Positions 891 to 20,712 of a stretch of 64,000 nt of DNA are shown here, in pieces. The stretch covers positions 4,830,962 through 4,894,961 of the forward strand of contig NC_008278.1 in assembly GCF_000058485.1 (NCBI RefSeq), read 5' to 3'. The notes below the pieces were generated by a model. The model did not search any database, had not been told where the DNA came from, and saw only the letters and a list, made by a program, of their open reading frames with translations. The position numbers and the translations under genes were made by a program. The stretch is from Frankia alni ACN14a (lineage in GTDB: Bacteria > Actinomycetota > Actinomycetes > Frankiales > Frankiaceae). The stretch's first letter is position 1; every line of letters begins with the position of its first letter.

Positions 891-1096
891 TCGGCTCATC
901 CGGCGGGCCGGCCGGAATCCCGACACCGATCGCGGCAGCAGGCGCCGCCGGGCCGTCGGGCCGGTTCCGATCGCGATGACCAAGCGGCTACGTCCACCGA
1001 CGCGGCCCCGTCCACCCGACGCGGCCCCGTCCTCTGGCGCGCCGCCAAGACCAACCCCAACCCCGTCGACCACTCGATCAGGAGAACGGAAACCCG

Positions 1097-6628: not shown

Positions 6629-7755
6629 CCGTCCACAAGGTCGACGTCGTCGTGCTCGGCGGCGGGGCGATGGGGTCGGCGGCGGCCTGGCAGCTGGCCC
6701 GCCGCGGCGTCGACGTCGTGCTGCTCGAACGGTTCGCGGCCGGACACGTCCGGGGGGCCTCCCACGGCGCGTCCCGGATCTTCCGGCTCGCCTACCCGGA
6801 CCTCGGCTACATCCGCCTCGCCCAGCAGGCCCGGGTGCTGTGGCGGGAGCTGGAGGATCTCACCGGCACCGAGCTTCTCACCGTCACCGGCGGGGTGGAG
6901 CACGGCGGCGACCCCGCGTTGGACCAGGTGGCCGACGCCACCGCCGCGGCCGGCGTGGCGTCGCAGTGGTTGACGCCGCGCCAGGCCGCGCGGCGCTGGC
7001 CCGGCCTGCGTTTCGACACCCGGGTGCTGGTCCACCCGGACTCCGGGCGGCTGCACGCCGACAACGCCGTCACCGCGTTGCAGGACAGCGCCGTCAAGCA
7101 CGGCGGTGTGGTCCGCCACGAGGTGCCGGTGCGAACGCTGGCGGTGCGGGGGGACGACGCCGTCGAAATCCACACCGAGGACGACCGTTACCTCGCCCGC
7201 CGCGTCGTCGTCGCCGCCGGGGCCTGGACGGAGAAGCTGCTCGGCGGCCTCGTGCCGCTGCCGGCCCTGCGGGTCACCCAGGAGCAGCCCGCGCACTTCG
7301 CCCCGGTCGGCCCGCCCACGGCGGCCGATCAGGACCGCTGGCCCAGCTTCGGGCACCTGCTGACGGCCGGGACCCGGGAGGCCATCGCCTTCCACGGCGG
7401 TGTCTACGGGCTGGAGACCCCGGGCGAGGGCGTCAAGGTCGGCTTTCACGGGGTCGGGCCGGTGGTCGACCCGGACCGGCGGGACTTCGCGGCGGTGCCG
7501 GCCCAGCTCGCGGCGCTGCGGGAGTACGTGCGGCGCTGGATCCCCGGGGTGGACCCGGACCGTTTCGCCCCGATCAGCTGCACCTACACCACGACCCCGG
7601 ACTCACACTTCGTCCTGGACCGGCACGGCCCGGTGGTCGTGGCGGCGGGATTCTCCGGCCACGGTTTCAAGTTCGTGCCCGCCATCGGCCGCATCCTCGC
7701 GGACCTGGCCGTCGACGGCACCCGTCCCGATCCCCGTTTCGCCTCCACCCGTTGA
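6625..7755 (+). CDS. FAD-dependent amine oxidase of the sarcosine / N-methyl-L-tryptophan oxidase family
   Basis: A 376-residue cytoplasmic flavoenzyme that should oxidise the C-N bond of an N-substituted amino acid, giving H2O2 and an aldehyde. The Rossmann GGGAMGSAAAWQLARRG is at residues 12-28, and E34 binds the ribose. RGASHGASRIFRLAYP is the MSOX/MTOX signature around the flavin. Cys319 in the CTYTTTPD block aligns with the cysteine that carries covalent 8-alpha-S-cysteinyl FAD (Cys315 in bacterial sarcosine oxidase). GFSGHGFKFVPAIG closes the flavin pocket. GTG start in a GTGA overlap with the ATPase gene. Placed between transporter and monooxygenases, it probably processes the imported compound; the exact amine is unknown. 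Confidence 0.88.
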   Translation: MTVHKVDVVVLGGGAMGSAAAWQLARRGVDVVLLERFAAGHVRGASHGASRIFRLAYPDLGYIRLAQQARVLWRELEDLTGTELLTVTGGVEHGGDPALDQVADATAAAGVASQWLTPRQAARRWPGLRFDTRVLVHPDSGRLHADNAVTALQDSAVKHGGVVRHEVPVRTLAVRGDDAVEIHTEDDRYLARRVVVAAGAWTEKLLGGLVPLPALRVTQEQPAHFAPVGPPTAADQDRWPSFGHLLTAGTREAIAFHGGVYGLETPGEGVKVGFHGVGPVVDPDRRDFAAVPAQLAALREYVRRWIPGVDPDRFAPISCTYTTTPDSHFVLDRHGPVVVAAGFSGHGFKFVPAIGRILADLAVDGTRPDPRFASTR

Positions 7756-7778
7756 CCCGCCAGAAAGCGAGGATCACC

Positions 7779-9011
7779 ATGCCCGAACCCGATCCGCTGC
7801 ACCTCGCCGTCGCCCTGGACGGTGCGGGGTGGCACCCGGCGGCCTGGCGGGAGCCGTCCGCTCGCCCGCGCGAGCTGTTCTCCCCGGGCTACTGGGTGGA
7901 CCTGGTCACCGAGGCCGAACGCGGACTGCTCGACTTCGTGACCTTCGAGGACTCCCTGGCGTTGCAGTCCTCGCTGCTGGGCGGCGCGGACGACCGCACC
8001 GACGAGGTGCGGGGCCGGTTGGACGCGGTGCTGGTCGCCGCCCGGGTCGCCCCGCTGACCTCGCACATCGGCCTGGTGCCGGCCACCTCGGTCCTCCACA
8101 CCGAGCCGTTCCACCTCTCGAAGGCCATCGCGACCCTGGACTACACCAGCGGCGGCCGGGCCGGCTGGCGGGTCCAGGCCGGCCGGCCCGCCGAAAGCCC
8201 GCACTTCGGCCGGCGCGAAGCCCCCGAGATCAGCTTCGACAACCTCGACACACCCGAGATCCAGGCCTTCGTCACCGCATCGTTCGACGAGGCCGCCGAC
8301 TACGTCGAGGTCGTCCGCCGGCTGTGGGACAGCTGGGAGGACGACGCCGAGATCCGCGACGTCGCCACCGGCCGGTTCGTCGACCGCGACAAGCTGCACC
8401 ACATCGACTTCGAGGGACGCTGGTTCAGCGTCCGCGGACCCTCCATCACCCCCCGCCCCCCGCAGGGCCAGCCGCCGGTCACCGCGCTGGCGCACGCCAC
8501 CGTCACGTACCGGCTGGCGGCCCGTGCCGCCGACGTCGTCTACGTCACCCCCCACGACACCGACCAGGTGCGCGCCATCGTCGCCGAGGTCCGCGACGAG
8601 CAGGACCGCGCGGGGCGCGCCGGCGAGACCCTGCACGTCTTCGCCGACCTCGTGGTCGTCCTCGACGACACCGCCGAGGCGGCCGCGGACCGGCTCGGTC
8701 GACTCGACGGGCGCCTCGACGCGCCGGCCGGGTCCGACGCGAGGACCTTCGCCGGTACCCCCGCCGACCTCGCCGACCTCCTCCTCGACTGGCAGGCCGC
8801 GGGCCTCACCGGCTACCGGCTGCGCCCCGCCGTCCTGCCCGACGACCTGACCGTCATCACCCGCCGGCTCGCCCCCGAGCTCGCCCGCCGCGGTCGGTTC
8901 CGCACCGAATACCAGACCACCACCCTGCGCGGACACCTCGGCCTGCCCCGACCGGCCAGCCGTTACGCCGTCGCCAGCGCCGAGCAGCGAATCGAGGTCG
9001 CCTCCGCATGA
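7779..9011 (+). CDS. LLM-class flavin-dependent monooxygenase (NtaA/SnaA/DszA family), first copy
   Basis: A 410-residue bacterial-luciferase-like monooxygenase expected to use FMNH2 from a separate reductase. The barrel has FVTFEDSLALQS near the N-terminus and the substrate/flavin region LDYTSGGRAGWRVQAGRP, a variant of the family's LDHLSxGRAGWNVVT. The VRRLWDSWEDDA helix and DRDKLHHIDFEGRWFSVRGP are also family-typical. AGCGAGGA precedes the ATG; the gap to the oxidase gene is 23 bp and the stop overlaps the next gene (ATGA). This family attacks nitrilotriacetate, EDTA, dibenzothiophene sulfone and related sulfur or aminocarboxylate substrates. It is shorter and more divergent than the neighbouring paralogue, suggesting a distinct step or a heteromeric partnership. 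Confidence 0.88.
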   Translation: MPEPDPLHLAVALDGAGWHPAAWREPSARPRELFSPGYWVDLVTEAERGLLDFVTFEDSLALQSSLLGGADDRTDEVRGRLDAVLVAARVAPLTSHIGLVPATSVLHTEPFHLSKAIATLDYTSGGRAGWRVQAGRPAESPHFGRREAPEISFDNLDTPEIQAFVTASFDEAADYVEVVRRLWDSWEDDAEIRDVATGRFVDRDKLHHIDFEGRWFSVRGPSITPRPPQGQPPVTALAHATVTYRLAARAADVVYVTPHDTDQVRAIVAEVRDEQDRAGRAGETLHVFADLVVVLDDTAEAAADRLGRLDGRLDAPAGSDARTFAGTPADLADLLLDWQAAGLTGYRLRPAVLPDDLTVITRRLAPELARRGRFRTEYQTTTLRGHLGLPRPASRYAVASAEQRIEVASA

Positions 9012-10384
9012 CCAGCCCGCGCAAGCAGATCATCCTCGGTCACTACATCGGCGGGGTCAATCACCACACGGTGTGGTCGGATCCGGCCGCCGGCAGCCAG
9101 ATCGCGTTCTCGTCGTTCCGGCACGCGGCCCAGGCGGCGGAGCGCGGGAAGTTCGACTTCTTCTTCCTCGCCGAGGGGCTGATCCTGCGCGAGCGGCTCG
9201 GCCAGATCTTCGACCAGGACATCGTCGGGCGCCCGGACACCCTGCCGGTGCTCGCCTCGCTGGCCGCCGTCACCGAGCATCTCGGGCTCGTCGGCACCCT
9301 GAACGCCACCTTCAACGAGCCGTACGAGCTGGCCCGCCAGCTTGCCTCGCTGGACCATCTCTCCGGCGGCCGGGCCGGCTGGAACGTGGTGACCTCGTTC
9401 GACGCCTTCACCGGGCAGAACTTCCGCCGGGGCGGTTTCCTGCACCGCGACGACCGGTACGTGCGGGCCGAGGAGTTCGTCGCCCTCGCCCGCCAGCTGT
9501 GGGACTCCTGGGCCGCCGACGCGATCGCCGCCGACGCCGAGACCGGCCGGTTCCTGCGCGACGCCGCGGCCGGGACGTTCCGCCACTCCGGTCGCCAGTT
9601 CGACGTCGCCGGCCGGTTCACCGTGCCGCGCAGCCCGCAGGGACGGCCGGTGGTCCTGCAGGCCGGGGTCTCGCCGCAGGGCCGTGACTTCGCCGCCGCC
9701 ACCGCCGACGCGATCTTCTCGCCGTACCACGAGCTCGGGCCGGCCCAGGAGTACTACCGCGACATCCAGGCCCGCCTCGCGCGGGCGGGCCGGCCGCCGG
9801 GCTCGGTGAAGCTGCTGCCCGGCGGGGCGTTCATCCTCGGCGACACCGAGGCCGACGCCGTCGAGCGGCAGCGGGAGGTCGCGCGCGCCCAGGTCAGCGG
9901 GCGGACCGCGCAGATCCTGCTGGAGACCGTCTGGAACCGGGACCTGTCCGGCTACGATCCGGACGGCCCGCTGCCCGACGTCGACCCGGACCCGGCCGGC
10001 CCGCCGGTGATCCAGGGCCGCGCCCGGCTCGCCGAGGACCCGTTCGAGACCGTGCGGACGTGGCGCGCGCTGGCCGAGGCCAACCGTTATTCGCTGCGGG
10101 ACCTCGCGATCCGCGTGTTCAGCCACACCGAGTTCGTGGGCACGCCGACCCAGATCGCCGACCGGCTCGACCACTTCGTCCAGAACGACGGCTCGGACGG
10201 CTTCATCCTGGGCTCGCACGTGACCCCCGGGGGCATCGACGAGTTCGTCGACAAGGTCGTCCCGTTGCTGCAGGAACGCGGCTCGCTGCGCGCCGAGTAC
10301 AGCGGGACGACGCTGCGGGAGAACCTCGGCCTCCCGCCGGTTCCGGTCGCTGCGGACCGGACGCCGCAGGGCGCGCCGGCGTGA
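9008..10384 (+). CDS. LLM-class flavin-dependent monooxygenase (NtaA/SnaA/DszA family), second copy
   Basis: A 458-residue canonical member of the family. The motifs are in order: WRxP-region variant GVNHHTVWSDPAAGSQ, FDFFFLAEGLILRE, LASLDHLSGGRAGWNVVTS, FRRGGFLHRDDRYVRAEEFV, FRHSGRQFDVAGRFTVPRSP, QGRPVVLQAGVSPQGRDFAA and a C-terminal NDGSDGFILGSHVTPGGIDEF. It uses reduced flavin and O2 for C-S or C-N cleavage. The ATG overlaps the stop of the first monooxygenase and the stop overlaps the GTG of the acetyltransferase. No flavin reductase is in the operon, although a flavodoxin-like NADPH:FMN reductase-family gene lies just upstream on the other strand. Confidence 0.92.
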   Translation: MTSPRKQIILGHYIGGVNHHTVWSDPAAGSQIAFSSFRHAAQAAERGKFDFFFLAEGLILRERLGQIFDQDIVGRPDTLPVLASLAAVTEHLGLVGTLNATFNEPYELARQLASLDHLSGGRAGWNVVTSFDAFTGQNFRRGGFLHRDDRYVRAEEFVALARQLWDSWAADAIAADAETGRFLRDAAAGTFRHSGRQFDVAGRFTVPRSPQGRPVVLQAGVSPQGRDFAAATADAIFSPYHELGPAQEYYRDIQARLARAGRPPGSVKLLPGGAFILGDTEADAVERQREVARAQVSGRTAQILLETVWNRDLSGYDPDGPLPDVDPDPAGPPVIQGRARLAEDPFETVRTWRALAEANRYSLRDLAIRVFSHTEFVGTPTQIADRLDHFVQNDGSDGFILGSHVTPGGIDEFVDKVVPLLQERGSLRAEYSGTTLRENLGLPPVPVAADRTPQGAPA

Positions 10385-11232
10385 CCGCACGGCATCCGCT
10401 GGACAACCCGGCCTTCGCCTCCCTGCTGGGGCCGCACGCGCACCTCGCCGTCCGGCAGGGCGACGTGCTGCGCTACCCCGAGGACGTCGCACCGTTCATC
10501 GCCCTGCCGGACGATCCCGACGCCGACACCTGGCGCGACGCCGCGACGCTGCTCGGACCCGGGGCGGTCCTGCCGCTCGCCGGCTTCGACGGCGAGCCGC
10601 CGACCGGATGGGAGGTCATCGGACACGGTGCCGGTGTGCAGCTGGTGGACGACGGTGTCGCCGCGGCGCCCGACGACGAGGCCGTCCGACTCGGGCCGGA
10701 CGACGTCGGGGACATCCTCGCGCTGATCGACCGCACCCGGCCCGGGCCGTTCCGGTCCCGGACCATCGAGCTCGGCACCTACCTCGGCATCCGGCGCGGC
10801 GGCGTGCTCGTCGCGATGGCCGGGGAGCGGCTGCACCCGCCGGGCTGGACGGAGATCAGCGCGGTGTGCACCGACGAGGCCCACCGCGGGCAGGGACTGG
10901 CCACCCGGCTCGTGCACGCCGTCGCCGCGATCATCCGGGCCCGGGGGGAGACGCCGTTCCTGCACGCCTCGGCGGACAACACCGGCGCGATCAGGCTCTA
11001 CGAACAGCTCGGTTTCCGCCTGCGCCGGCGGGTGAGGTTCACCGTCGTCCGGGTGCCCGGTGAGCCCACGGGCGGTGTGCCAGCCCCGAACCCGTTCGCC
11101 GCCGTGCGCGACGCGGGCGCCCCGACCACCGGCATCCCGACCACCGGCGGCGCGACCACCGGCGGCGCCGCCGCCCCCGCGCCGCGCAGCGCGTCGGGGG
11201 CCGACGTGACGAGCGGAGATCCGGCCGGGTGA
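10381..11232 (+). CDS. GNAT-family N-acetyltransferase (FR47-like) with repeat tail
   Basis: A 283-residue protein; the acetyl-CoA fold is at about residues 95-225. Motif A RGQGLATRLV (about residues 169-178) binds the CoA pyrophosphate. FLHASADNTGAIRLYEQLGFRLRRR is the usual C-terminal GNAT half. The N-terminal ~90 residues resemble the partner half of two-lobed GNATs. GTG start in a GTGA overlap with the monooxygenase. It may acetylate an amine intermediate or detoxify a product of the pathway. The C-terminal ~60 residues are low complexity, including PTTGI-PTTGG-ATTGG from a 15-bp tandem repeat at 11122-11166. Last gene of the operon. Confidence 0.87.
   Translation: MTARHPLDNPAFASLLGPHAHLAVRQGDVLRYPEDVAPFIALPDDPDADTWRDAATLLGPGAVLPLAGFDGEPPTGWEVIGHGAGVQLVDDGVAAAPDDEAVRLGPDDVGDILALIDRTRPGPFRSRTIELGTYLGIRRGGVLVAMAGERLHPPGWTEISAVCTDEAHRGQGLATRLVHAVAAIIRARGETPFLHASADNTGAIRLYEQLGFRLRRRVRFTVVRVPGEPTGGVPAPNPFAAVRDAGAPTTGIPTTGGATTGGAAAPAPRSASGADVTSGDPAG
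11122..11166 (+). repeat. 15-bp tandem repeat x3 near the acetyltransferase 3' end
   Basis: Three units of consensus CCGACCACCGGCGGC, in frame, encode PTTG(I/G)/ATTGG in the dispensable C-terminal tail. Confidence 0.85.
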
Positions 11233-11269
11233 CCGGAGTACGCCGGCTCGACTACGGGGCTCGCCGCCA

Positions 11270-11410
11270 CGTGGCGCCGAGCGGGCCCAGCTCCTGCCCC
11301 GTGCCGTGGAGACTGGCGCGTCGACCGTGCCGACCGGGAGGTTCTGATGGCGGCTGACGAGATCCGCGATGCGCAGCCAGTCAGCCGTGTGAGTAGCGTT
11401 GGTCCGCGAG
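11270..11410 (-). pseudogene. PIN-domain (VapC-like) toxin remnant
   Basis: Read on the minus strand, the segment gives ADWLRIADLVSRHQNLPVGT followed by VDA. This closely matches the fourth conserved stretch of VapC ribonucleases, (D)LPLGTxDAS with its catalytic aspartate. The reading frame then degenerates; QELGPLGAT in another frame resembles the ERLGxT segment that normally follows, implying frameshifts. No N-terminal half or antitoxin is recognisable. The rest of 11233-11583 holds no gene I can support. Confidence 0.4.
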
Positions 11411-11583
11411 CCCATGCTTGCCCGGGGACACGCACGGCTGGGCCCGGTTGCGCCCACGTCGGCGGCTGCTTCCGTGATGGCGGCGCCCACTGTCGACGAG
11501 GTCGCGCTGCGCGAGCAGGTCGAGGCATCGCACTCAGGTGCACAGGCCACCGCATCGGGCACAATCACCGAAAGGAGGTGATC

Positions 11584-11892
11584 ATGCGTCCGTTGATCGA
11601 GGCCAGGCGGACAGAGATCCAAGGACTCTGCCGTCGGCTCGGCATCCGCCGCCTCGACCTCTTCGGCTCCGCGACCAGCGAAGCCTTCGACCTCGACAGC
11701 AGCGACGTCGATGTCCTCGTCGAGTTCGACGATCGTGCCGAATTCGACTACTACAGCACCTACTTCGCCCTCAAGGAGGGACTCGAGCACCTGTTGGGCC
11801 GCGCCGTTGATGTCGTCAGCGTCACCAGCATTCGCAACCCCTACTTCCACGACCAGGTCATGCGCACCAGGCAGTCCCTGTATGCCGCCTGA
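11584..11892 (+). CDS. MNT-type nucleotidyltransferase antitoxin (MntA family)
   Basis: A 102-residue minimal nucleotidyltransferase. The catalytic signature is complete: G28-S29, then D41 and D43 in LDSSDVDVLVEF. The start follows an ideal Shine-Dalgarno AAAGGAGGTGATC directly before the ATG, which decides against a longer in-frame ORF beginning at 11347. In known MNT/HEPN pairs this protein neutralises the HEPN ribonuclease, in characterised cases by adding AMP to a conserved tyrosine. The HEPN partner starts inside its last codons (ATG at 11882) but is truncated, so this antitoxin is now an orphan. Codon use is less GC-biased than the flanking operon, consistent with transfer. Confidence 0.88.
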   Translation: MRPLIEARRTEIQGLCRRLGIRRLDLFGSATSEAFDLDSSDVDVLVEFDDRAEFDYYSTYFALKEGLEHLLGRAVDVVSVTSIRNPYFHDQVMRTRQSLYAA

Positions 11893-12115
11893 CCCGCGGA
11901 AGTACCTCTGGGATGCCGCGAACGCGGCTGGACTCGCCAGAAGTTTCGCCCATGGCCAGACCTTCACCGGCTATCAGGCGAACGCGATGCTCCGCGCCGC
12001 CGTCGAGCGCGAGTTCGAAATCATCGGCGAGGCACTCAACCAGCTCTCCAAGGTCGCCCCGGACGTCGTACCGGGACGTCGAGGAACTTCTGGCCGAACG
12101 CGGCATCGACGTTGA
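11882..12115 (+). pseudogene. HEPN toxin truncated by an IS6-family fragment
   Basis: The ATG overlaps the antitoxin stop, the usual MNT-HEPN arrangement. The first ~62 residues (MPPDPRKYLWDAANAAGLA, then VEREFEIIGEALNQLSKVAP) match DUF86/HEPN proteins. At about 12066 the sequence switches abruptly to a transposase, so the catalytic R-x(4-6)-H motif near the HEPN C-terminus is missing. The frame ends after a short arginine-rich extension at 12115. It cannot be an active ribonuclease. The exact junction is visible where VAPDVVP-coding DNA meets the transposase SYRDVEELL. Confidence 0.8.
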
Positions 12116-12596
12116 CCACGCCACCGTCTACCGGTGGGTCCAACGCTTCACGCCCTCGCTCGTCGACGCGCGCGGCCCTGCCGGCACAGCCCTGGGGACA
12201 GGTGGTTCGTCGACGAGACCTGCCATCAAGGTCGCCGGCTACTGGACCTACCTGTACAGGGCGGTCAACCTGCACGGCCAGGTCATCGACGTCCTCGCCA
12301 GCACCCGCCGCGATCAGGCTGCGGCACGCCCGTTCTTCACCGCGGCGCTGTCTCACGGGCGCCGGCCGGTCGAGGTCACCACCGACAAGGCCGCCGTTTA
12401 CCCACGGATCCTCGACGAGCTGCTCCCCAAGGCCTGCCACGCCGACGCCGCGCGGGAGAACAACCGGATCGAAGCCGATCACGGCCGCCTGAAAGCCCGA
12501 CTGCGGCCGATGCGCGGCCTGAAACGGCTGCTCTCCCAGCAGGCCTGCTGGCTACGCATCGTGACGCCAGACCAAGCGCATCCCGTTACTGCCTGA
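12066..12596 (+). mobile_element. IS6-family (IS26-like) transposase remnant, frameshifted and truncated at both ends
   Basis: SYRDVEELLAERGIDVD and VYRWVQRF open the fragment in one frame. PCRHSPGDRWFVDET, with the first catalytic Asp, is in the +1-shifted frame. IKVAGYWTYLYRAVN, TTDKAAVYP (second Asp) and NNRIEADHGRLKARLRPMRG (Glu) are back in the first frame. So there are two compensating frameshifts near 12165 and 12225. After MRGLKR (about 12527) the normal C-terminus is lost. The N-terminal helix-turn-helix start and terminal inverted repeats are not recognisable. This is a dead insertion that destroyed the HEPN gene. Confidence 0.85.
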
Positions 12597-12627
12597 TCAC
12601 ATCCTCTGGTCAAATGCGACGAGCCCC

Positions 12628-13896
12628 TTATCCCATCCCATCCGTCAGCCGGCCTAGGTTTACTCGGCGCAGATCGCCAACGACCAAGACGTCGTGGCCT
12701 TGGTAAGCCATCGGGAACTCAGCCCGGATTTTTTCGCCGTCGATTCGAAATGTCCCCAGGGCGGTGCTCGGAGCACAGCTCGACGTGCTTGGTGTCACCG
12801 GGTGAGACGTGATTGACAGTACCGTCGGCGCACGCACAGAATTTAGTAGCACCTCCCCCACGCCCACACAGTTGGCTACTACCCATCTGGAGCTTCCGAT
12901 CACGCTGTCGGCCTTTGCGACCCCAAAAAGCGTCAGTTCGATTTTCATCCGCGCTGAACCGACAATGGCCACTCCCTCCCAGCCGCCGACGAACGCGGCC
13001 GGCACGACCGTTGCCGAGGAGGAGCCGGGCGACGTCGCCGCCGTCGGGGGCGCTCCCGTGGGAAAGGCCGACGCGGTCGCGCCCAGTCCTGTGGGAGCAG
13101 GATTGACGGGCAGGACCAGAGTCGGGGTGGCGGTCGGAGTTGGAGCCGAGGTTGGGGCCGAAGCGGATCTCGCGTCCCCCGTGTCACGGATGCCGGGGAA
13201 GAAGGCGACGAGAAGCCCGACCGACAAGACGCCGATCACGACGAGAGCTGCCCGCGTCCGCCTCCGCGGCCTGCTCATGCCGGCAGCTCTCCGCCTTCCA
13301 GGCGCGGACTGCGCGTGGGACGGCCTTGGCTTCGCCCCACCCGTCAGTGAGCCACGCCTGAGCATCCGCAGCTCAGCCAGCGGGACGTAGAAACGCCCTT
13401 TGAAACTGGCCTCGTCCCGGGCGGCATCGATCAGTTCCTGGGCGGGAAACCGGCCGCGGACGATGGCTTCGACATGCTCACGGTCGAGCAACATCAAGCG
13501 CGGGCGGTCGCCGCTGCGCTTCAGGCTGGACAGTGCCTGCTCCGTGTAGCCGGACATGGAGACGAAGATTCCCAGCGTGCCCTCCTGCCGCTGTCGGACG
13601 CGGGCCGCGAGCTGGGCCAACGGGCCGAAGTCAATCGGCCTCCGGTGCCATTTTGCTTCCAGTATGAAGCGCGTCTGGCCCTGCCTGAAAGCAACATCGA
13701 CCTCGCCGAGCTCTCCGCACGAGCTCACCACCGGATCGAGGCCCTCGGCATGAAGCGCCTTGGCAAGAAGTCGGTTGAACTCGACCCCTCTCGCCTGCTT
13801 GCTCATTCCTCCCTCGAGGTTCACCAGCGCGCGATAGTCCCGTTCCAGTTCAAGGCGGACAGCCTCGACTGGGGGAAGCGGGTCTTCTTGTCCCAT
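12628..13896 (-). CDS. Membrane-anchored PD-(D/E)XK (Mrr-like) nuclease-fold protein with extracytoplasmic domain
   Basis: A 422-residue three-part protein. Residues ~38-165 are a restriction-endonuclease-like fold: FNRLLAKALHAEGLDP, then E65-x-D67 in GEVDVAF and E80-A-K82 in FILEAKWH, giving the PD-(D/E)XK catalytic set. LGIFVSMSGYTEQA resembles the Mrr_cat segment that places a glutamine or serine near the active site. Residues ~216-235 are one transmembrane helix after a basic cluster. A Thr/Pro/Ala-rich linker and a ~120-residue C-terminal beta-rich domain (VGGWEGVAIVGSARMKIELT) should lie outside the cell. AGGTGATC precedes the ATG. A membrane-tethered nuclease domain facing the cytoplasm with a sensor-like outer domain suggests defence against incoming DNA, but this is inference. 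It lies in accessory DNA next to a TA/IS wreck. Confidence 0.72.
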   Translation of the reverse strand: MGQEDPLPPVEAVRLELERDYRALVNLEGGMSKQARGVEFNRLLAKALHAEGLDPVVSSCGELGEVDVAFRQGQTRFILEAKWHRRPIDFGPLAQLAARVRQRQEGTLGIFVSMSGYTEQALSSLKRSGDRPRLMLLDREHVEAIVRGRFPAQELIDAARDEASFKGRFYVPLAELRMLRRGSLTGGAKPRPSHAQSAPGRRRAAGMSRPRRRTRAALVVIGVLSVGLLVAFFPGIRDTGDARSASAPTSAPTPTATPTLVLPVNPAPTGLGATASAFPTGAPPTAATSPGSSSATVVPAAFVGGWEGVAIVGSARMKIELTLFGVAKADSVIGSSRWVVANCVGVGEVLLNSVRAPTVLSITSHPVTPSTSSCAPSTALGTFRIDGEKIRAEFPMAYQGHDVLVVGDLRRVNLGRLTDGMG

Positions 13897-14124
13897 CCGC
13901 TGATCACCTGATCCCGTAGGCGGACAACCGAGAGCCCTGAACCGTGGAGGTCCGGCTCCTGCGCGGGGCAGTCAGCCGGATGAGTCAGCCAGAACCGTCT
14001 CCATCGTCTCGCAGCGTGCCTATAGCTCCGACCCGGCCCCCCTTGTGCGATCAGCTGAGTTGTAGGGCTTTGGCTCGGCGGTGGCAGTGGCTCACGCAGG
14101 CGCTTCCACTTCAGCCCGGTGGTG

Positions 14125-14330
14125 ATGGTCTCGACTCCCCGGACCGCGCCGGTGGTGTCGCTGTTGCCATGGACGTACAGGGCATACGGCCGGCCGACGG
14201 TGGCTTCCAGGCACGGATAGTAGATCTGGTCGAAGAAGTGCTTGAGCGCACCGCTCAGGTAGCCGATGTTGGCGGGCGTCCCCAGCAGGTAGCCGTCGGC
14301 GGCGAGCACGTCGAGCGCGGTCGGCCGACC
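14125..14330 (-). pseudogene. Flavodoxin-family fragment, truncated at both ends
   Basis: The minus strand reads ALDVLAADGYLLGTPANIGY, then SGALKHFFDQIYYPCLEATV and VHGNSDTTGAVRGVETI, then leaves the family sequence after TTGLKWK. The N-terminal ~40 residues and C-terminal ~35 residues of a normal ~155-residue protein are missing. It is a paralogue of the gene at 1-253 but clearly diverged at nucleotide level, so not a recent copy. The region 13900-14125 beyond it shows no gene I can support. Confidence 0.75.
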
Positions 14331-14344
14331 CTAGACTGATCGGC

Positions 14345-17300
14345 GTGGTCGTGAGTCTCACCCTCCTGGACGGGGTGCGCTGGGAGGGCGCCCCGGTGGC
14401 GGGCGACCGGCCGCAGGCGCTGCTGGCGGCGCTGGCGTCCGAGTACGGGCGGCCGGTGCGGGCGGAGCGGCTGGTCGAGATGATCTGGTGCGGGGAGCCG
14501 TTGGCCAATCCGACCAAGGGGCTGCAGGTGGTCGTCTCCCGGACCAGGGCGGCCTGCGGTGCCGGCGCGGTGGTGCGCGACGGCGACGGCTACCGGCTCG
14601 GCCTCCCGCCGGCGCAGGTCGACAGCTGCCTGCTCGGCCAGCTGGTGGCCGAGGCCGCCGGACTCGTCGCGGCCGATCCGCGGGCCGCCGCCGCGCGGGC
14701 CCGCGCGGCGCTCGAACTCGGCGCGTCACTGCCGACGGTGCCCGCGGACGACCGGGGGACGCTCGCCGACGTCCGCCGGGCGGCCGGGCGCGACCTGGCG
14801 GCGGCCCGGCTGCTGCTGGCCCGGGTCGCGAGCCGGACTGGCCGGCACGCCGAGGCACTCCCGCTGTTGGAGACGGCCCACGCAGGGCGGCCCGACGACG
14901 AGGGCCTGCTGGCCGACCTGCTGCGCAGCGAGGCCGCGGTGCGCGGGCCCGGGGCGGCCCTGCACCGCTTCGAGGGCTACCGCCGGGACCTGCGGGAGCG
15001 GCTGGGCACCGGCCCCGGTGAGGCGCTCATCCGGATGCAACGCGAACTGCTCGCCCTCGACCGGCCGCCCGTCCGCGACGGGATCCAGTACGACGCCACC
15101 GCCCTGCTGGGCCGCCAGCACGACGTCGACCGGCTGCGGGCGCTGCTGGACCGGTCCCGGGTGGTGTCGATCGTCGGGCCGGGGGGTCTGGGCAAGACCC
15201 GCCTGGCGTACCTGCTCGCCCGGGACAGCGCGCTGCCGGCGGTGCATGTCGTCCCCCTCGCCGGGGTGACGGCGCCCGAGGACCTGCTCGGCGAGATCGG
15301 CGCCGCGCTCGGGGTCCGCGACTCCATCGGCGAGCGCCGGGTGCTGACCCCGGCGCGACGCGCCGACCTGCGCACCCGCATCGCCGCGCGGCTCGCCCGG
15401 GGGCCGACCCTGCTGCTGCTGGACAACTGCGAGCACCTCGTCGTCGCGGTCGCCGAGCTCGTCGCCTTCCTGGTCACGGCCACCGCCGACCTGCGGGTGC
15501 TCACGACGAGCCGCGCCCCGCTGGCGATCAGCGCCGAACGGGTCTACCTGCTCGGGGAACTGGCCCGCGCCGACGCGATCGAGCTGTTCTGCCAGCGCGC
15601 CGCCGCCGCCCGACCCACCGTCCGGCTCGACCATGCGGTGATCGGCCGGATCGTCGACCGGCTCGACGGGCTGCCGCTGGCGATCGAGCTGGCGGCGGCG
15701 CGGGTCCGGGCGATGTCGGTGGAGGACGTCGACCGGCGGCTGACGGACCGGTTCACCCTGTTGCGCGGCGGCGACCGGGCCGCACCGGATCGCCACCGCA
15801 CGCTGCTCGCGGTGATCGACTGGTCGTGGAACCTGCTGGCGGAGCCGGAGCGGCGCTCGCTGCGCCGGCTGGCGGTCTTCCCGGACGGTTTCACCCTCGC
15901 CGCGGCGGAGGAGGTCCTCGCCGCCTCCACTGACGGCTCCGACCCCGGAGGCGGCTCCGACCCCGGAGGCGGCTCCGATCCCGTGGACGGCTCCGATCCC
16001 ATGGAGACGGTGCAGAACCTCGTCGACCAGTCGTTGCTGAGCGTGCGCGAGTCAGCCGGCGGGGTGCGCTACCGGATGTTGGAGACGGTCCGGGAGTTCG
16101 GCTGGCTGCGGCTGGCCGAGTGCGGCGAGCAGGCGTCGGCCCGGCGGGCCCGGCGGGACTGGGCGGTCGGCCACGCGGCCCGACACAGCGCGCAGCTGTC
16201 GACCGAGCGGCAGTTCACGGCGATCGACGCGATCGCGGCCGAGGAGACGAACCTCGCCGACGAACTGCGGACCGCGCTGGCCGGCGACGACGCCGAGACG
16301 GTCGCGCGCCTGGTGACCGTGCTCGAACTGTTCTGGACGATCCGCGGCGAACACGTCCGGATGATGACGTTGATCGACGCGGTCACCACGGTGCTGTCCG
16401 GCTGGGCGCCGCCGCCCGGACTGGTGCCGGTGGCGTTGGCCGCCGGGACCGCCGTGGCGAGAACCGCGGTTTTCATGGGCGACGGGGCCCTCCCGCCGCA
16501 GCTGCGTGACCTGCTGGCACGGCTGGCCCCCCACGCGGGAGACGATCCGTCGCTGGTCGGCGGGGCCCGAGTGCTCCTCGCGCTCGCCCCGGCAGAGTCC
16601 GTCGAGTCCGTCGAGACGGCCGAGACGGCCGAGACGCGGCTCGCGCGGCTGGCGGACGCCTCCGACCGGCACACCCGCCTGCACGCCCTGGTGTGGCTGA
16701 CCCATCTGCGGGAGAACGTCGGCGACGTGCGGGCCTCGGCCGCGACCGCCACCCGCGCGCTGGCACTCGCCGCGCCGCAGGACGGGCCGTGGCTGGCGGC
16801 CATGGTGCACACCCGGCTCACCGAACTGACGATGCAGCTCGGCGATCTGCCGGCCGCGCGTGCCCACGCCTCGGCGGCCCTGCCGGTCCTGGAGCGTCTC
16901 GGTGCCCACGACGATGTCGCGCAGCTGCGGGTGCTGCTGGCGCTCGACGCCGTCAACGACGGCCGGCTCGACGCGGCCGAGCGCCATCTCGCCCGGATCG
17001 GCTCGCCCAGCGACACGCTGCACAGCGGCCCGATGATGGCGGCGATCGGCCGGGCGGAGGTCGCGCTCGCCCGCGGCGACACCGCCGGCGGTCTGCGCCG
17101 CTACCTGGACGCGGCGCGGGCGCTGCGGGCGATGCGCTGGCCCGGCATCGAAGCGACCGGCGTCGAGCCCTGGGCGCTCGTCGCGGACGCGGTGACGCTG
17201 GCCGCGTTCACCTGGCACGCGACCGCCGACGACGACCTCGCCACCGGCCACGAGCTGTTCCGCTCCGGTCTGCTGCGGTGCGTCGGCGCGCTGCGGCGCG

Positions 17301-17767
17301 GCCACACCGCGATCGACTATCCGGCCTGCGGGACGCTGCTGTTCGCACTCGGAGCCTGGGGCCTTCGCGCCGCCCGGCCGACCGGGACGACGGCGCGGGA
17401 GGCGGTGGAGCTGCTCGCGCTGGCGCAGCGGTTCTCCTACGTGGCGACGATCCCGTCGCTGGCCTGGGCACGGGTCGAGGCGCTCGCGGAGCGCCGGGCG
17501 CCCGGCGCGCTCCCGGCGGCCCGGGCGGGCGACGACGATCGGCGCCCGGCGCAGCTGCTCGACGAGGCGCGTGTCCTCGTCGAGCGGCTGGCCGGACGGC
17601 TCGACGACGTGTCGCCGGGCCACGGGTCACAGGTGGCGCTTGTAGCTGGCGACCGACAGCGGCATGAAGATCACGACCACGGCGAACCCGGTGAGCAGCG
17701 TCCAGCCCACCTGCCCGGTGATCACGCCGTTGTTGGCCAGGTCCCGGGTGGCGGAGACGAGATGTGA
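14345..17767 (+). CDS. AfsR/SARP-like regulator: winged helix, BTAD, NB-ARC ATPase and TPR-type repeats
   Basis: A 1140-residue STAND-type transcription regulator. Residues 1-85 form an OmpR-type winged helix (VSLTLLDGVRWEG, then RLVEMIWCGEP and LQVVVSRTRA). Residues ~95-235 are a BTAD domain. An NB-ARC-type ATPase follows, with Walker A GPGGLGKTRLA near 278 and Walker B-like LLLLDNCEHLV near 358. Then come the GLPLAIELAAARVRAM and IDWSWNLLAEPER blocks typical of the AfsR/LuxR_LAL group, and TPR-like helices. An 18-bp repeat at 15932-16003 encodes a Gly/Ser/Asp/Pro linker. The last ~47 codons run antisense through the 3' end of the convergent permease gene (17627-17767) and look unlike the family, so the original stop has probably been lost. 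GTG start; it may control the adjacent exporter, but that is inference. Confidence 0.88.
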   Translation: MVVSLTLLDGVRWEGAPVAGDRPQALLAALASEYGRPVRAERLVEMIWCGEPLANPTKGLQVVVSRTRAACGAGAVVRDGDGYRLGLPPAQVDSCLLGQLVAEAAGLVAADPRAAAARARAALELGASLPTVPADDRGTLADVRRAAGRDLAAARLLLARVASRTGRHAEALPLLETAHAGRPDDEGLLADLLRSEAAVRGPGAALHRFEGYRRDLRERLGTGPGEALIRMQRELLALDRPPVRDGIQYDATALLGRQHDVDRLRALLDRSRVVSIVGPGGLGKTRLAYLLARDSALPAVHVVPLAGVTAPEDLLGEIGAALGVRDSIGERRVLTPARRADLRTRIAARLARGPTLLLLDNCEHLVVAVAELVAFLVTATADLRVLTTSRAPLAISAERVYLLGELARADAIELFCQRAAAARPTVRLDHAVIGRIVDRLDGLPLAIELAAARVRAMSVEDVDRRLTDRFTLLRGGDRAAPDRHRTLLAVIDWSWNLLAEPERRSLRRLAVFPDGFTLAAAEEVLAASTDGSDPGGGSDPGGGSDPVDGSDPMETVQNLVDQSLLSVRESAGGVRYRMLETVREFGWLRLAECGEQASARRARRDWAVGHAARHSAQLSTERQFTAIDAIAAEETNLADELRTALAGDDAETVARLVTVLELFWTIRGEHVRMMTLIDAVTTVLSGWAPPPGLVPVALAAGTAVARTAVFMGDGALPPQLRDLLARLAPHAGDDPSLVGGARVLLALAPAESVESVETAETAETRLARLADASDRHTRLHALVWLTHLRENVGDVRASAATATRALALAAPQDGPWLAAMVHTRLTELTMQLGDLPAARAHASAALPVLERLGAHDDVAQLRVLLALDAVNDGRLDAAERHLARIGSPSDTLHSGPMMAAIGRAEVALARGDTAGGLRRYLDAARALRAMRWPGIEATGVEPWALVADAVTLAAFTWHATADDDLATGHELFRSGLLRCVGALRRGHTAIDYPACGTLLFALGAWGLRAARPTGTTAREAVELLALAQRFSYVATIPSLAWARVEALAERRAPGALPAARAGDDDRRPAQLLDEARVLVERLAGRLDDVSPGHGSQVALVAGDRQRHEDHDHGEPGEQRPAHLPGDHAVVGQVPGGGDEM
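15932..16003 (+). repeat. 18-bp tandem repeat x4 inside the SARP-like regulator
   Basis: Four in-frame units starting at 15932, 15950, 15968 and 15986 encode (D/G)GSDP(G/V/M) and form a flexible linker after the NB-ARC module. The first two units are nearly identical; the last two carry GAT for GAC. Confidence 0.9.
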
Positions 17768-18484
17768 CACCGGGTTGACCTTGGTGAAGGTCTCCAACCA
17801 GCCCGGCATCGTCTTCGACGGCACGAACGCGTTGGACAGGAAGGTCAGCGGGAAGAGGATCATCATCGAGATGCCCTGCACGCCGCGGGCGCTGCGGGCG
17901 ACCGTGCCGATCCAGGTGAACGCCCACGCGATCGCCCAGCCGGTGAGGACCGCCAGCACGATCGCGCCGAGCACACCGAGCACCCCGCCGCCGGGTCGGT
18001 AGCCGAGGATCAGGCCCATGATGTAGGTCAGGCTCGCCGCGATCAGGTACCGGACCAGGTCGGCGACCATCGGCCCGGCCAGTGGGGCGATCCGGGACAT
18101 CGGCAGCGACCGGAACCGGTCGAAGACCCCCTTGTCCATGTCCTCCCGCAGCTGCGTCCCGGTGGCCATGCAGGTGGTGAGCACGGTCTGGGCGACGATG
18201 CCGGGAATCAGCAGCGGCAGGTAGCTGTGGACGTCGCCGGAGATCGCGCCGCCGAACACGTAGGCGAACATCGCGGTGAACAGCAGCGGTTGCAGCGCGA
18301 CGTCGAAGAACTGCTCCGGGTTGCGGCGCATCTTCTTCAACGCCCGCCACGCCATCGCGAGGGTCTGGGTGAGGGTGTCCCCCACCCCGGCGCGGGCCCG
18401 CGTGCGGGCGACGGCGGCGGCCGGGTCGGCGGCCGGGGCCGGTCGCGGGCGCGCGGCGGTCGGATCGTCGAGGACGGTGGTCAT
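17627..18484 (-). CDS. ABC-2 type transporter permease (DrrB-like)
   Basis: A 285-residue exporter membrane subunit. The N-terminal ~30 residues are a Pro/Ala-rich cytoplasmic tail; the ABC2 domain follows, starting TLAMAWRALKKMRRNPEQFF. Six hydrophobic helices and the family block LPLLIPGIVAQTVLTTCMAT, then DRFRSLPMSRIAPL are present. NAFVPSKTMPGWLETFTKVNPVSHL is the conserved late DrrB signature. The ATG overlaps the stop of the ATPase gene (ATGA), so the two subunits are coupled. Such pairs export anthracyclines, glycolipids or other hydrophobic metabolites; the substrate here is unknown. Its 3' end overlaps the convergent regulator ORF by 141 bp. Confidence 0.93.
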   Translation of the reverse strand: MTTVLDDPTAARPRPAPAADPAAAVARTRARAGVGDTLTQTLAMAWRALKKMRRNPEQFFDVALQPLLFTAMFAYVFGGAISGDVHSYLPLLIPGIVAQTVLTTCMATGTQLREDMDKGVFDRFRSLPMSRIAPLAGPMVADLVRYLIAASLTYIMGLILGYRPGGGVLGVLGAIVLAVLTGWAIAWAFTWIGTVARSARGVQGISMMILFPLTFLSNAFVPSKTMPGWLETFTKVNPVSHLVSATRDLANNGVITGQVGWTLLTGFAVVVIFMPLSVASYKRHL

Positions 18485-19530
18485 CGGGCCATCTCCGTGG
18501 GGGTGTCGTCGAGGCTGGGCGTGTCCTGGCCGGGAACGGTTCCGACCGGGCCGCCGGCGTCGGTCGGGCCGCCGGCACCGGGGTCCGGCGCGGTGCCGTG
18601 GCCGGTGAGGGCGAAGAAGACCTCGTCGAGGGTCGGCTTGGCGACGCTGACCGAGGCGATTCCGACGCCGGCCTCGCGCAGCGCGATCAGCACGTCGGCG
18701 GCCCGGTCGGCGACGTCGAGCGGAACGTTGAGCCGGCCGGACTCCGGGGTGGTGACCGGCTCCTCGCCGAGCACGCGGTGCACCACCGCGCGGGCAAGCG
18801 CCTGGTCGGCCCCGGGAGCGAGCTGGAGTTGCAGGGTCGAGTCGCCGACCTGGGTCTTCAGTTCGTCCGGCGTGCCCTCGGCGACCTTGCGGCCGTGGTC
18901 GATCACGCAGACCCGGTCGGCGAGCTGGTCGGCCTCGTCCAGGTACTGCGTGGTGAGCAGGACGGTGCAGCCATCGTCGACGAGCTCCCGGATGGTGTCC
19001 CACATCTGGCCGCGGGTGCGCGGGTCGAGGCCGGTCGTCGGTTCGTCCAGGAAGATCAGCGGCGGCCGGGTGATGAGGGAGGCGGCGAGGTCGAGGCGGC
19101 GGCGCATCCCGCCGGAGAACGCCGAGATCCGCCGCTCGGCGGCCTCGCCCAGGCCGAACTGCTCCAGCAGCCGGCGCGCGGTGGCACGCGCGTCCGCCGA
19201 GCGCAGGCCCTGCAGCCGGCCGAACAGCCACAGGTTCTCCGCGGCGGTGAGGTCCTCGTCCACCGAGGCGTACTGGCCGGTCACGCCGATGAGCTGGCGG
19301 ACCCGGTGGGGCTCGGCGGCGACGTCGACACCGAAGATCTCGGCCCGGCCGCCGTCGATCGGCAGCAGCGTGGCCAGCATCTTCAGCATCGTCGTCTTGC
19401 CGGCGCCGTTGGGCCCGAGGACCCCGAAGATCTCGCCGTGGTGCACCTCGAGATCGATCTCGTCGACGGCGCGGACATCGCCGAACTTTTTGACCAGGCC
19501 TCCGGCCTGGACAGCGGGCGTTGGTGTCAC
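18481..19530 (-). CDS. ABC transporter ATPase, daunorubicin-resistance (DrrA) family
   Basis: A 349-residue ATPase. Walker A GPNGAGKTTM, Q-loop TGQYASVDEDLTAAENL, signature FSGGMRRRLD, Walker B LIFLDEPTTGLD and the H-loop region VLLTTQYLDEADQL are all present. LVKKFGDVRAVDEIDLEVHHGE opens the domain and the ~80-residue C-terminal DrrA extension ends in SVAKPTLDEVFFALTGHG. I chose the GTG at 19530 because GGAAGGAAG sits just upstream; a longer ORF begins at 19584. The ~25-residue tail after the family core is Gly/Pro/Thr-rich. It should energise the permease encoded immediately downstream. Confidence 0.93.
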   Translation of the reverse strand: MTPTPAVQAGGLVKKFGDVRAVDEIDLEVHHGEIFGVLGPNGAGKTTMLKMLATLLPIDGGRAEIFGVDVAAEPHRVRQLIGVTGQYASVDEDLTAAENLWLFGRLQGLRSADARATARRLLEQFGLGEAAERRISAFSGGMRRRLDLAASLITRPPLIFLDEPTTGLDPRTRGQMWDTIRELVDDGCTVLLTTQYLDEADQLADRVCVIDHGRKVAEGTPDELKTQVGDSTLQLQLAPGADQALARAVVHRVLGEEPVTTPESGRLNVPLDVADRAADVLIALREAGVGIASVSVAKPTLDEVFFALTGHGTAPDPGAGGPTDAGGPVGTVPGQDTPSLDDTPTEMAR

Positions 19531-19670
19531 ACGACTTCCTTCCACGGGATGCGGGCCTGCCACCACGGGACGCAGGCAGGGCACGACAGGGCGAGCGCGC
19601 TGAACAGGACGCTAGACAACGGCGGTATCACCGCCCCTACACGCCGGTTTCACCCGCCTTCGGCTGTGCC

Positions 19671-19730
19671 TCTGGCTCGGCCGACAGGCGTCTGGCTCGG
19701 CCGACAGGCGTCCGGCTCAGCCGACAGGCG
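19671..19730. repeat. 20-bp tandem repeat x3 straddling the stop codon of the GlxA-type regulator
   Basis: Units at 19671-19690, 19691-19710 and 19711-19730 share the consensus TCTGGCTCGGCCGACAGGCG; the first two are identical. The stop codon of the minus-strand gene (19717-19719) lies inside the third unit. The rest of 19531-19716 has no gene I can support. Confidence 0.95.
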
Positions 19731-20712
19731 TCCGGCCTGCGCCGTCCGGCGAGCGGGTGTCGGCGAACGTGGCCCGGTAGGCGGCCGGAGCGACGCCGAG
19801 GATGCGACGGAAGTGCGGGCGCAGGGCGACGGCGTCGGCGAAGCCGACTCGGCGGGCGAGGGCGTCCACGGACAGGCCGGGTGACTCCAGCAGTCGCTGC
19901 GCCCACAGGACCCGCTGGGTGAGCAGCCACTGCAGCGGCGAGCTGCCGGTGTGCGCGCGGAAGCGCCGGTCGAAGGTGCGCCGGCTCAGGTGAACGTGAC
20001 GGGCCATCGCGTCGACATCCAGGTCGGCGTCGCCCAGCCGGTCCAGCGCGAAGACGATCGCGGCCGCGACCGGATTCCCCTGGGTGACGGGCGGCACCGG
20101 TCGTTCGATGTACTGGGCCTGACCGCCTGTCCGGTGCGGCGCGACGACGAGGGAACGCGCGACCGCGTTCGCGGCGGCGGACCCGCGGGCCCGGCGCAGC
20201 AGATGCAGGCACGCGTCGATCCCCGCGGCGCTGCCCGCGCTGGTCACGATGTCACCCTCGTCGACGTAGAGCACGTCCGCGTCGACCGTCGCCCGCGGAT
20301 GATCGGCGGCGAGCCGGGCAGCGAACCGCCAGTGTGTGGTGACCCGCCGTCCGTCGAGCAGGCCGGCGGCGCCCAGGACGAACGCGCCGAGGCACAGGCC
20401 GGCGACGACGGCACCACCGTCGCGCGCCGCCACGAGGGCCGCGAGCAGCGCCTCCGGCGCAGGCGCGCCGCCCGGCACACGCCAGCCCGGCACGATCACC
20501 GTGCCGGCCGCGTCGAGCGCGTCGAGACCGTGCGGCGGATCGACGACGATCCCGGCCGAGGTGGTGAGCGGGCCCGGTTCGGCGGCGACCGCCAGCACCG
20601 TGTGGGCCGGCACCTCGGGGTGGACCGGGCCGAACACCCGGGTCGGGATCGACGCCTCGAAGATCGGCATGTCCTGTCCGAACACGACGGCGACGGTGTC
20701 AGCGTCTCGCAC
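19717..20712 (-). CDS. GlxA/FtrA-type regulator: DJ-1/PfpI domain plus AraC helix-turn-helix
   Basis: A 331-residue regulator. The N-terminal ~190 residues are a class-I glutamine amidotransferase-like DJ-1/PfpI domain (VAVVFGQDMPIFEASIPTRV, nucleophile-elbow GLCLGAFVLGAAGLLDGR, and THWRFAARLA, then SAGSAAGIDACLHLLRR). The C-terminal ~100 residues are an AraC pair of helix-turn-helices (MARHVHLSRRTFDRRFRAHT, then VGFADAVALRPHFRRILGVAP). The group controls catabolic or stress genes in response to a ligand bound by the DJ-1 part. It is divergent from the isochorismatase-like gene at 20917, which it may control (inference). The C-terminal residues are encoded by a tandem repeat. Confidence 0.92.
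   Translation of the reverse strand: MRDADTVAVVFGQDMPIFEASIPTRVFGPVHPEVPAHTVLAVAAEPGPLTTSAGIVVDPPHGLDALDAAGTVIVPGWRVPGGAPAPEALLAALVAARDGGAVVAGLCLGAFVLGAAGLLDGRRVTTHWRFAARLAADHPRATVDADVLYVDEGDIVTSAGSAAGIDACLHLLRRARGSAAANAVARSLVVAPHRTGGQAQYIERPVPPVTQGNPVAAAIVFALDRLGDADLDVDAMARHVHLSRRTFDRRFRAHTGSSPLQWLLTQRVLWAQRLLESPGLSVDALARRVGFADAVALRPHFRRILGVAPAAYRATFADTRSPDGAGRTPVG

What the first reader, a model, noticed from the sequence alone, without database searches (positions are those of the whole stretch)
12628..13896. Transmembrane PD-(D/E)XK nuclease-fold protein with an outer sensor-like domain
The order Mrr-like nuclease core (E65xD67, E80xK82), one helix, linker, and extracytoplasmic beta domain is unusual: restriction nucleases are normally soluble. 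Placement in accessory DNA next to TA and IS debris, and the absence of a methyltransferase, suggest a membrane-tethered nuclease that could act on DNA entering the cell. Function is inferred, not shown.
Basis: partly seen in the sequence, partly recalled or inferred. Interest (0 to 1): 0.62.

Follow-up and report, generated by a model that had tools for sequence, protein, structure and literature searches.

The report
Membrane-anchored nuclease with kinase-type outer domain
A soil bacterium carries a gene for a DNA-cutting enzyme that appears to be fixed in the cell membrane, with a small outer domain resembling the sensor end of its protein kinases, which suggests, but does not show, a DNA cutter controlled from outside the cell.

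Summary
The 422-aa ORF at 12628-13896 (-) has an N-terminal Mrr_cat domain (Pfam E 1e-8). AlphaFold2 models residues 11-180 well as a PD-(D/E)XK core; structure searches return MspJI, BspD6I and FokI nucleases. D67, E80 and K82 are invariant in 13 of 13 aligned sequences; E65 is not. One hydrophobic helix (218-236, N-in by charge) and a Pro/Thr-rich linker lead to a C-terminal domain of about 120 aa.

New here: that outer domain looks like a divergent copy of an unnamed two-cysteine domain at the outer end of actinobacterial Ser/Thr kinases (6 of 7 invariant Pro/Gly/Trp/Cys columns matched; best profile E only 0.028). The nearest relative (54% in the nuclease) is nuclease-TM-WD40. The nuclease may have taken a kinase's place in a receptor scaffold.

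Membrane attachment is not in itself unusual: other Mrr_cat proteins carry an N-terminal hydrophobic segment, and SNIPE is a proven membrane-bound anti-phage nuclease (PMC13190303), though of different fold and layout. Defence against entering DNA is plausible but untested. New variant of a known kind.

The parts
12628..13896 (-). Whole gene, 422 aa: nuclease - TM - linker - outer domain
13345..13869 (-). PD-(D/E)XK (Mrr_cat) nuclease domain, residues 10-184; D67, E80, K82
   Evidence: Pfam 1e-8; AF2; Foldseek/VIA; invariant residues
13189..13245 (-). Transmembrane helix, residues 218-236, predicted N-in/C-out
   Evidence: hydropathy, flanking charge
13009..13143 (-). Pro/Thr/Ser/Ala-rich linker, residues 252-296
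   Evidence: 76% PTSA
12661..13008 (-). Outer domain, residues 297-412, with C343 and C374; likely divergent copy of the actinobacterial kinase-tail domain
   Evidence: profile and shuffle tests, matched invariant columns

Best explanation
The protein is a single-pass membrane 'receptor nuclease'. Its cytoplasmic N-terminal domain is a catalytically complete Mrr-type PD-(D/E)XK DNA nuclease; its outer C-terminal domain is a divergent copy of the small two-cysteine domain that ends some actinobacterial Ser/Thr kinases. Shown by computation: the fold, the conserved catalytic residues, one hydrophobic helix, and the similarity of the outer domain to kinase tails. Inferred: N-in/C-out topology, a disulphide between C343 and C374, and the mechanism. 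Proposed mechanism: the helix keeps the nuclease at the membrane and away from the bulk of the chromosome, and the outer domain meets an envelope cue (phage or mating contact, wall damage or a ligand) that positions or dimerises the nuclease domains so that they cut DNA close to the membrane, most simply DNA that is entering the cell.
For: Fold and active site. Membrane layout. Outer domain against a kinase-tail profile: first of 1585 targets, among them 1000 shuffles (E 0.028); global z 8.2, 6.5 and 5.8 for three profiles, against a best of 3.2, 2.6 and 2.1 among 65 control segments; of 7 Pro/Gly/Trp/Cys columns invariant in 21 of 21 kinase tails it has 6: Pro, Gly, Trp, Gly, Cys, Cys. Theme seen twice: sister protein L007 (54% in the nuclease; joint clade 96/84, three-row clade with L008 98/99) is nuclease-TM-WD40, and its WD40 part matches kinase tail L124 of the host genome at 3e-28. 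Defence lead, indirect: of five plasmid neighbourhoods of more distant relatives fetched, one has a RES gene (L017) and one AAA, UvrD-helicase and Abi genes (L018); two relatives lie on viral contigs; L003 is fused to an OLD-like TOPRIM; weak match of the window protein to PADLOC candidate PDC-S02 (3.9e-5). Precedent that a membrane nuclease can cut injected phage DNA: SNIPE, PMC13190303.
Against: No experiment. HMMER scores the outer domain only at E 0.028 and over residues 2-48 of the segment; with the first 12 residues held fixed z falls to 4.5, 2.2 and 1.5, so much of the signal lies in the VPAAFVGGWEG motif. One of 7 invariant columns and 7 of 9 nearly invariant ones are not matched, and the window row was aligned together with the tails, which favours matching cysteines. 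L131 was picked by eye among 23 tails before testing. No confident model of the outer domain. No orthologue with the same outer domain in 35 genomes of the order, so constraint on the whole architecture cannot be measured. Of the 18 tree rows only two have a clear helix; the other 16 peak at 1.63 or less against 2.58 and 1.93. Seven of the 8 relatives scanned gave no PDC-S02 match at 0.01. No recognised defence system adjoins the gene in the ORFs scanned.
Confidence: 0.45

Rival explanations
1. Plain membrane tether, SNIPE-like: the helix only sequesters a constitutively active nuclease near the entry site, and the outer domain anchors it to the wall or to an entry protein without signalling.
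For: SNIPE without its helix is toxic through its nuclease, and its homologues have variable N-terminal regions (PMC13190303, passages); Mrr_cat ORFs with only an N-terminal hydrophobic segment exist.
Against: The outer module resembles kinase tails, and the sister protein has a WD40 there, which would be large for a mere anchor. DUF4041 and GIY-YIG were not found.
Confidence: 0.25
2. Suicide receptor: an envelope cue unleashes the nuclease on the cell's own chromosome (abortive infection or programmed death), like effector-sensor proteins of multicellular bacteria.
For: REase effectors, including Mrr-like ones, and membrane-proximal conflict systems are described in multicellular bacteria, among them actinobacteria (PMC7159879, passages and one section); sister L007 lies in an 18 kb stretch with a TIR/NB-ARC/TPR gene.
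Against: No proteolytic switch gene was recognised among the ORFs scanned beside the window gene; a tethered nuclease should reach the chromosome poorly.
Confidence: 0.15
3. Housekeeping DNA maintenance at the membrane, like RmuC.
For: RmuC combines a helix with a PD-(D/E)XK domain (PMC1189080, passages).
Against: Patchy: the nuclease subfamily is in 11 of 296 genomes of the class (E 1e-8) and relatives in 4 of 13 of the genus; the gene lies in lower-GC DNA beside TA and IS debris.
Confidence: 0.06
4. Non-functional chimera or decaying gene in an island scar.
For: Neighbours look truncated (HepT 4-47 of 120; FMN reductase 68-119 of 152); third-position GC 0.74 against 0.90-0.95 for several neighbours; single occurrence of the full architecture.
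Against: Open frame, conserved catalytic set, helix, and 6 of 7 invariant columns of the outer domain kept.
Confidence: 0.09

Closest known systems
SNIPE (membrane-bound anti-phage nuclease, PMC13190303; abstract, passages and Discussion seen)
   Same: Single-pass membrane protein with a cytoplasmic DNA nuclease domain; localisation as the proposed self/non-self filter
   Different: SNIPE is GIY-YIG with DUF4041 and an N-terminal helix; here a PD-(D/E)XK domain precedes the helix and an outer domain of about 120 aa follows
Mrr_cat (PF04471) ORFs with an N-terminal hydrophobic segment in actinobacterial genomes (L093, L094, L096, L097, L099, L100, L101)
   Same: Same Pfam domain, hydrophobic segment
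   Different: Segment lies before the domain; no hydrophobic segment or long part after it
COG4741 and RmuC (PMC1189080; passages seen)
   Same: PD-(D/E)XK domain with a membrane helix; COG4741 was already proposed to guard against foreign DNA
   Different: N-terminal helix, YraN- or McrC-related nuclease, no outer sensor-like domain described in the passages
Actinobacterial Ser/Thr kinases with the VPxx[FY]xGxWxG two-cysteine tail (e.g. L131 in the host genome)
   Same: Basic juxtamembrane stretch, helix, linker and the outer domain
   Different: Cytoplasmic domain is a kinase, not a nuclease
PADLOC PDC-S02 (phage defence candidate)
   Same: Weak match over the nuclease part, E 3.9e-5
   Different: Matches only 202-303 of 346 profile positions; 1 of 8 relatives scanned matched it

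Membership tests
Mrr_cat / PD-(D/E)XK nuclease superfamily | Profile match above curated cut-off | tested here: met
   35.7 bits against 21
Mrr_cat / PD-(D/E)XK nuclease superfamily | alpha-beta-beta-beta-alpha-beta core | tested here: met
   AF2 model, residues 33-137; MspJI, BspD6I, FokI, EndoMS in structure searches
Mrr_cat / PD-(D/E)XK nuclease superfamily | D...E-x-K catalytic residues | tested here: met
   D67, E80, K82 in 13 of 13
Mrr_cat / PD-(D/E)XK nuclease superfamily | DNA cleavage activity | not testable with these tools
   needs biochemistry
SNIPE | GIY-YIG nuclease domain | tested here: not met
   only Mrr_cat found in Pfam up to E 1
SNIPE | DUF4041 domain | tested here: not met
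   only Mrr_cat found in Pfam up to E 1
SNIPE | Membrane helix with cytoplasmic nuclease | tested here: inconclusive
   hydropathy and charge only
Actinobacterial kinase-tail domain (unnamed) | Invariant Pro/Gly/Trp/Cys columns, after TM and linker | tested here: met
   6 of 7 matched, the seventh (Gly) is Ala; z 5.8-8.2
Actinobacterial kinase-tail domain (unnamed) | Significant sequence-profile match over the whole length | tested here: inconclusive
   HMMER E 0.028, local to residues 2-48 of the segment
Restriction-modification system | Cognate methyltransferase nearby | tested here: not met
   none among 17 ORFs scanned, 976-20712
PDC-S02 | Match over most of the profile | tested here: not met
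   best 202-303 of 346

The most novel reading that the evidence does not exclude
A bacterial receptor nuclease: in the host's family a PD-(D/E)XK nuclease has replaced the kinase in the kinase-TM-outer sensor scaffold, with two different outer modules (two-cysteine domain here, WD40 in L007), so that an outside signal is turned directly into DNA cleavage at the inner membrane face.
Probability: 0.3. Interest if true: 0.8.

Novelty: new variant of a known kind. Interest (0 to 1): 0.52.

Why it matters
If outer-domain control is real, it would couple an extracellular signal to DNA cutting in one polypeptide, without a second messenger or kinase cascade, and would offer a PD-(D/E)XK counterpart to SNIPE in an actinobacterium. 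It also draws attention to an outer domain shared by kinases, for which no credible Pfam match was found in the three copies tested.

Tried and rejected
Outer domain by direct search: 1 of 35 genomes of the order at E 0.001 (own only); 69 of 296 genomes of the class at E 0.1, of which only the own match is below 0.001. I read frames at 10 loci: 8 and 2; none showed this architecture. The two (G018, second place in G019, residues 199-335) look like lipoproteins, so 7 of 35 genomes, not 8, carry the nuclease. No Pfam family for the outer domain; three kinase tails gave one chance hit (DciA, E 0.15). PDB sequence search gave only linker matches to a transporter, E 0.04 and 0.1. NCBIfam: one chance linker match, E 0.042, none for five relatives and partners. 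PHROGs nothing for 3 proteins. Plasmids: 81 records match, none over 80% of the query. No phage record matched; no viral contig with the protein alone, 2 with the alignment. EACC1 two-gene systems (PMC7159879, section read) considered; no caspase-type partner among the ORFs scanned. Absence of other folds from the list is no evidence.

Limits: the first structure job was sent without an alignment by oversight and was unusable (pLDDT 38). In one search, 22 of 25 kinase-tail loci were recovered (L133, L134, L135 lost); L139 was a wrong 19-aa piece that stayed in that first profile and was dropped later, leaving 21. In one search, 37 of 51 loci were resolved; frames run from stop to stop, so some N-terminal segments may be artefacts. 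L006 was left out of alignment A1 and of the tree; L167 and L168 were not resolved and are not in the tree.

Literature: 6 papers; 8; 60, 10 listed; 1; 0; 133, 15 listed; 2; 11; none of the titles and abstract starts listed names a nuclease-TM-kinase-tail protein. This is absence in those searches of an open-licence library only. Passages were seen in PMC1189080, PMC7159879, PMC8195603, PMC13190303 and PMC12904381.

Full report
OBSERVATION. The reverse-strand ORF 12628-13896 reads as 422 aa from ATG to stop. The host assembly is one contig of 7,497,934 bases with one match; from recall, that length is that of Frankia alni ACN14a, which no call confirms, so 'Frankiaceae' would be the host's family by recall only. 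In 500-base blocks GC is 61-70% from about 11.5 to 14.5 kb and 71-80% in the other blocks between 10 and 18 kb; third-position GC is 0.74 against 0.90-0.95 in several neighbours, so the gene looks acquired. Flanking debris is real: an NTP_transf_2 (MNT-type) gene, a HepT-like match to 4-47 of 120 positions, a DDE_Tnp_IS240 match and an FMN-reductase match (68-119 of 152, below the family cut-off). No methyltransferase family appeared in the 17 ORFs scanned from 976 to 20712.

NUCLEASE. Pfam gives only Mrr_cat, E 1e-8. In alignment A1 (13 sequences: six of the host's family with the window protein, a Solirubrobacteraceae MAG, Psychromonas, five plasmids) the invariant columns are R36, G37, D67, E80, K82, W83, G109 and G116. 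The residue after F40 is E in 10 of 13 rows and N in the window protein, L007 and L008. E65 is E or Q across rows, so the set to mutate is D67/E80/K82. AlphaFold2 with a 5-row alignment models residues 11-180 well (pLDDT 69-94 per ten-residue block; 159 residues of the whole protein at 70 or more; pTM 0.47) with H33-50, E56-60, E65-72, E75-82, H90-102, E107-113 and so on, the PD-(D/E)XK order. Foldseek: the 4 matches at E 0.001 or less are all MspJI chains (best 1.6e-5); AF1548 and EndoMS about 2e-3; FokI 1.6e-2. VIA-align: Nt.BspD6I Z 11.9 (171 aligned, rmsd 4.3), R.BspD6I small subunit Z 11.1 (150, 3.2), AF1548 Z 10.2 (110, 3.1), FokI Z 9.9 (153, 5.2); non-nucleases such as RNA polymerase subunits appear lower, Z about 6-7. 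A shared fold does not prove activity.

MEMBRANE. One segment, 218-236, exceeds the hydropathy threshold (mean 2.58); it is preceded by 6 K/R in 15 residues and followed by 2. With no earlier hydrophobic segment this predicts a cytoplasmic nuclease and an outer C terminus. Membrane association of this fold is not new: 11 of 37 resolved Mrr_cat ORFs (of 51 loci from the host's family and class) had a hydrophobic segment before the domain, and 2 had a weak one after it (L083, L084) (crude test); RmuC and COG4741 were described in 2005, the latter with a proposed role of guarding against foreign DNA (PMC1189080, passages).

OUTER DOMAIN. Direct searches found no orthologue. Reading the tails of own-genome kinases (58 matches; 30 loci fetched; 23 with a TM tail by my script, 4 without my motif, 3 without TM), I saw that L131 ends in a domain with the same grammar. 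Its relatives are in 25 of 296 genomes of the class (18 of the host's family, 7 of one other family); in 21 of these 25 loci a kinase motif and the GxWxG motif lie in one open frame. Three tested have no credible Pfam family. A profile of 22 recovered pieces ranks the window domain first among 1585 targets including 1000 shuffles, but weakly (E 0.028). Global alignment with 21 rows gives z 6.4 (all), 5.6 (host's family) and 9.1 (the other family) with 150 shuffles, and 1.7, 1.3 and 4.2 with the first 12 residues held fixed. With 200 shuffles it gives 6.5, 5.8 and 8.2, against a best of 2.6, 2.1 and 3.2 among 65 control segments (other kinase tails and stretches of other window ORFs, 40 shuffles each); with 12 residues fixed 2.2, 1.5 and 4.5. 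I listed only Cys, Trp, Gly and Pro columns: of 7 invariant in 21 of 21 kinase tails the window domain has 6 (Pro, Gly, Trp, Gly, Cys, Cys; one Gly is Ala); of 9 nearly invariant it has 2, while five Gly differ and one Gly and one Pro are gapped. I regard common descent as likely (about 0.75), with the caveats that L131 was chosen by eye and that the window row was aligned together with the tails.

RELATIVES AND MODULE SWAP. The nuclease subfamily is patchy: 4 of 13 genomes of the genus, 7 of 35 of the family after removing a false hit, 11 of 296 of the class by profile at E 1e-8, own genome included each time. The tree of 18 rows joins the window protein with L007 (96/84) and both with L008 (98/99); 8 of 15 inner branches are open and two rows (L165, L166) are long. 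L007 is nuclease-TM-WD40, and its WD40 part matches kinase L124 of the host genome at 3e-28. WD40 repeats resemble each other widely, so this is weaker than it looks. L008 has no helix (peak 1.31); its C-terminal half looks propeller-like by eye but Pfam shows only Mrr_cat, and a 218-aa protein with one hydrophobic segment near its N terminus (17-35, 1.99) is encoded just upstream and overlaps it by 8 bases. The remaining 15 tree rows peak at 1.63 or less (the highest, L002, holds Arg and two Asp), and have other partners, for example an OLD-like TOPRIM in L003. So in this three-protein subclade the nuclease is joined to outer or propeller-type modules, and in two of three cases to a membrane helix.

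HOW IT MAY WORK. Shown computationally: nuclease fold, conserved active-site residues, hydrophobic helix, outer-domain similarity. Inferred: topology, disulphide, gating, defence. Most likely the helix confines the nuclease to the membrane and an envelope event sensed by the outer domain licenses cutting of nearby DNA. SNIPE gives the proven precedent for confinement: without its helix it is highly toxic through its nuclease, and the whole protein cuts phage DNA during injection (PMC13190303; abstract, passages and Discussion). The window protein is not a SNIPE member: no GIY-YIG, no DUF4041. Defence links are indirect: a weak PDC-S02 match (1 of 8 relatives scanned matched it, L008, E 0.0066); of five plasmid neighbourhoods fetched, RES beside L017 and AAA, UvrD and Abi genes near L018, the other three without such genes by their annotation; two viral-contig relatives; a TIR/NB-ARC/TPR gene near L007.

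VERDICT. A real, intact-looking, membrane-anchored PD-(D/E)XK nuclease with a probable kinase-type outer domain. Function remains a prediction.

Noticed in passing
L172 8184-8840 (+), beside L008 at 8833-10221: A 218-aa protein with one hydrophobic segment near its N terminus and no Pfam or NCBIfam family overlaps the start of the soluble nuclease relative in low-GC DNA; it may be its membrane partner.
   Followed up: partly
L131-L156 (kinase tails): Unnamed outer domain VPxx[FY]xGxWxG with two invariant cysteines at the end of Ser/Thr kinases; in 25 of 296 genomes of the class, no credible Pfam match for the three tested.
   Followed up: yes
L171 13752-16577 (+): TIR_2 - NB-ARC - TPR gene a few kb from the nuclease-TM-WD40 gene; STAND-type conflict gene.
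   Followed up: no
window 11347-12115 (+): MNT/HepT toxin-antitoxin pair whose HepT match covers only 4-47 of 120 positions, next to an IS240-type transposase piece.
   Followed up: partly
window 13821-14309 (-): FMN-reductase piece (68-119 of 152 positions, below cut-off) just upstream of the nuclease gene, a likely insertion scar.
   Followed up: no
L083, L084: Two Mrr_cat ORFs with a weak hydrophobic segment after the domain and a longer C-terminal part; possible further nuclease-TM-outer proteins.
   Followed up: no
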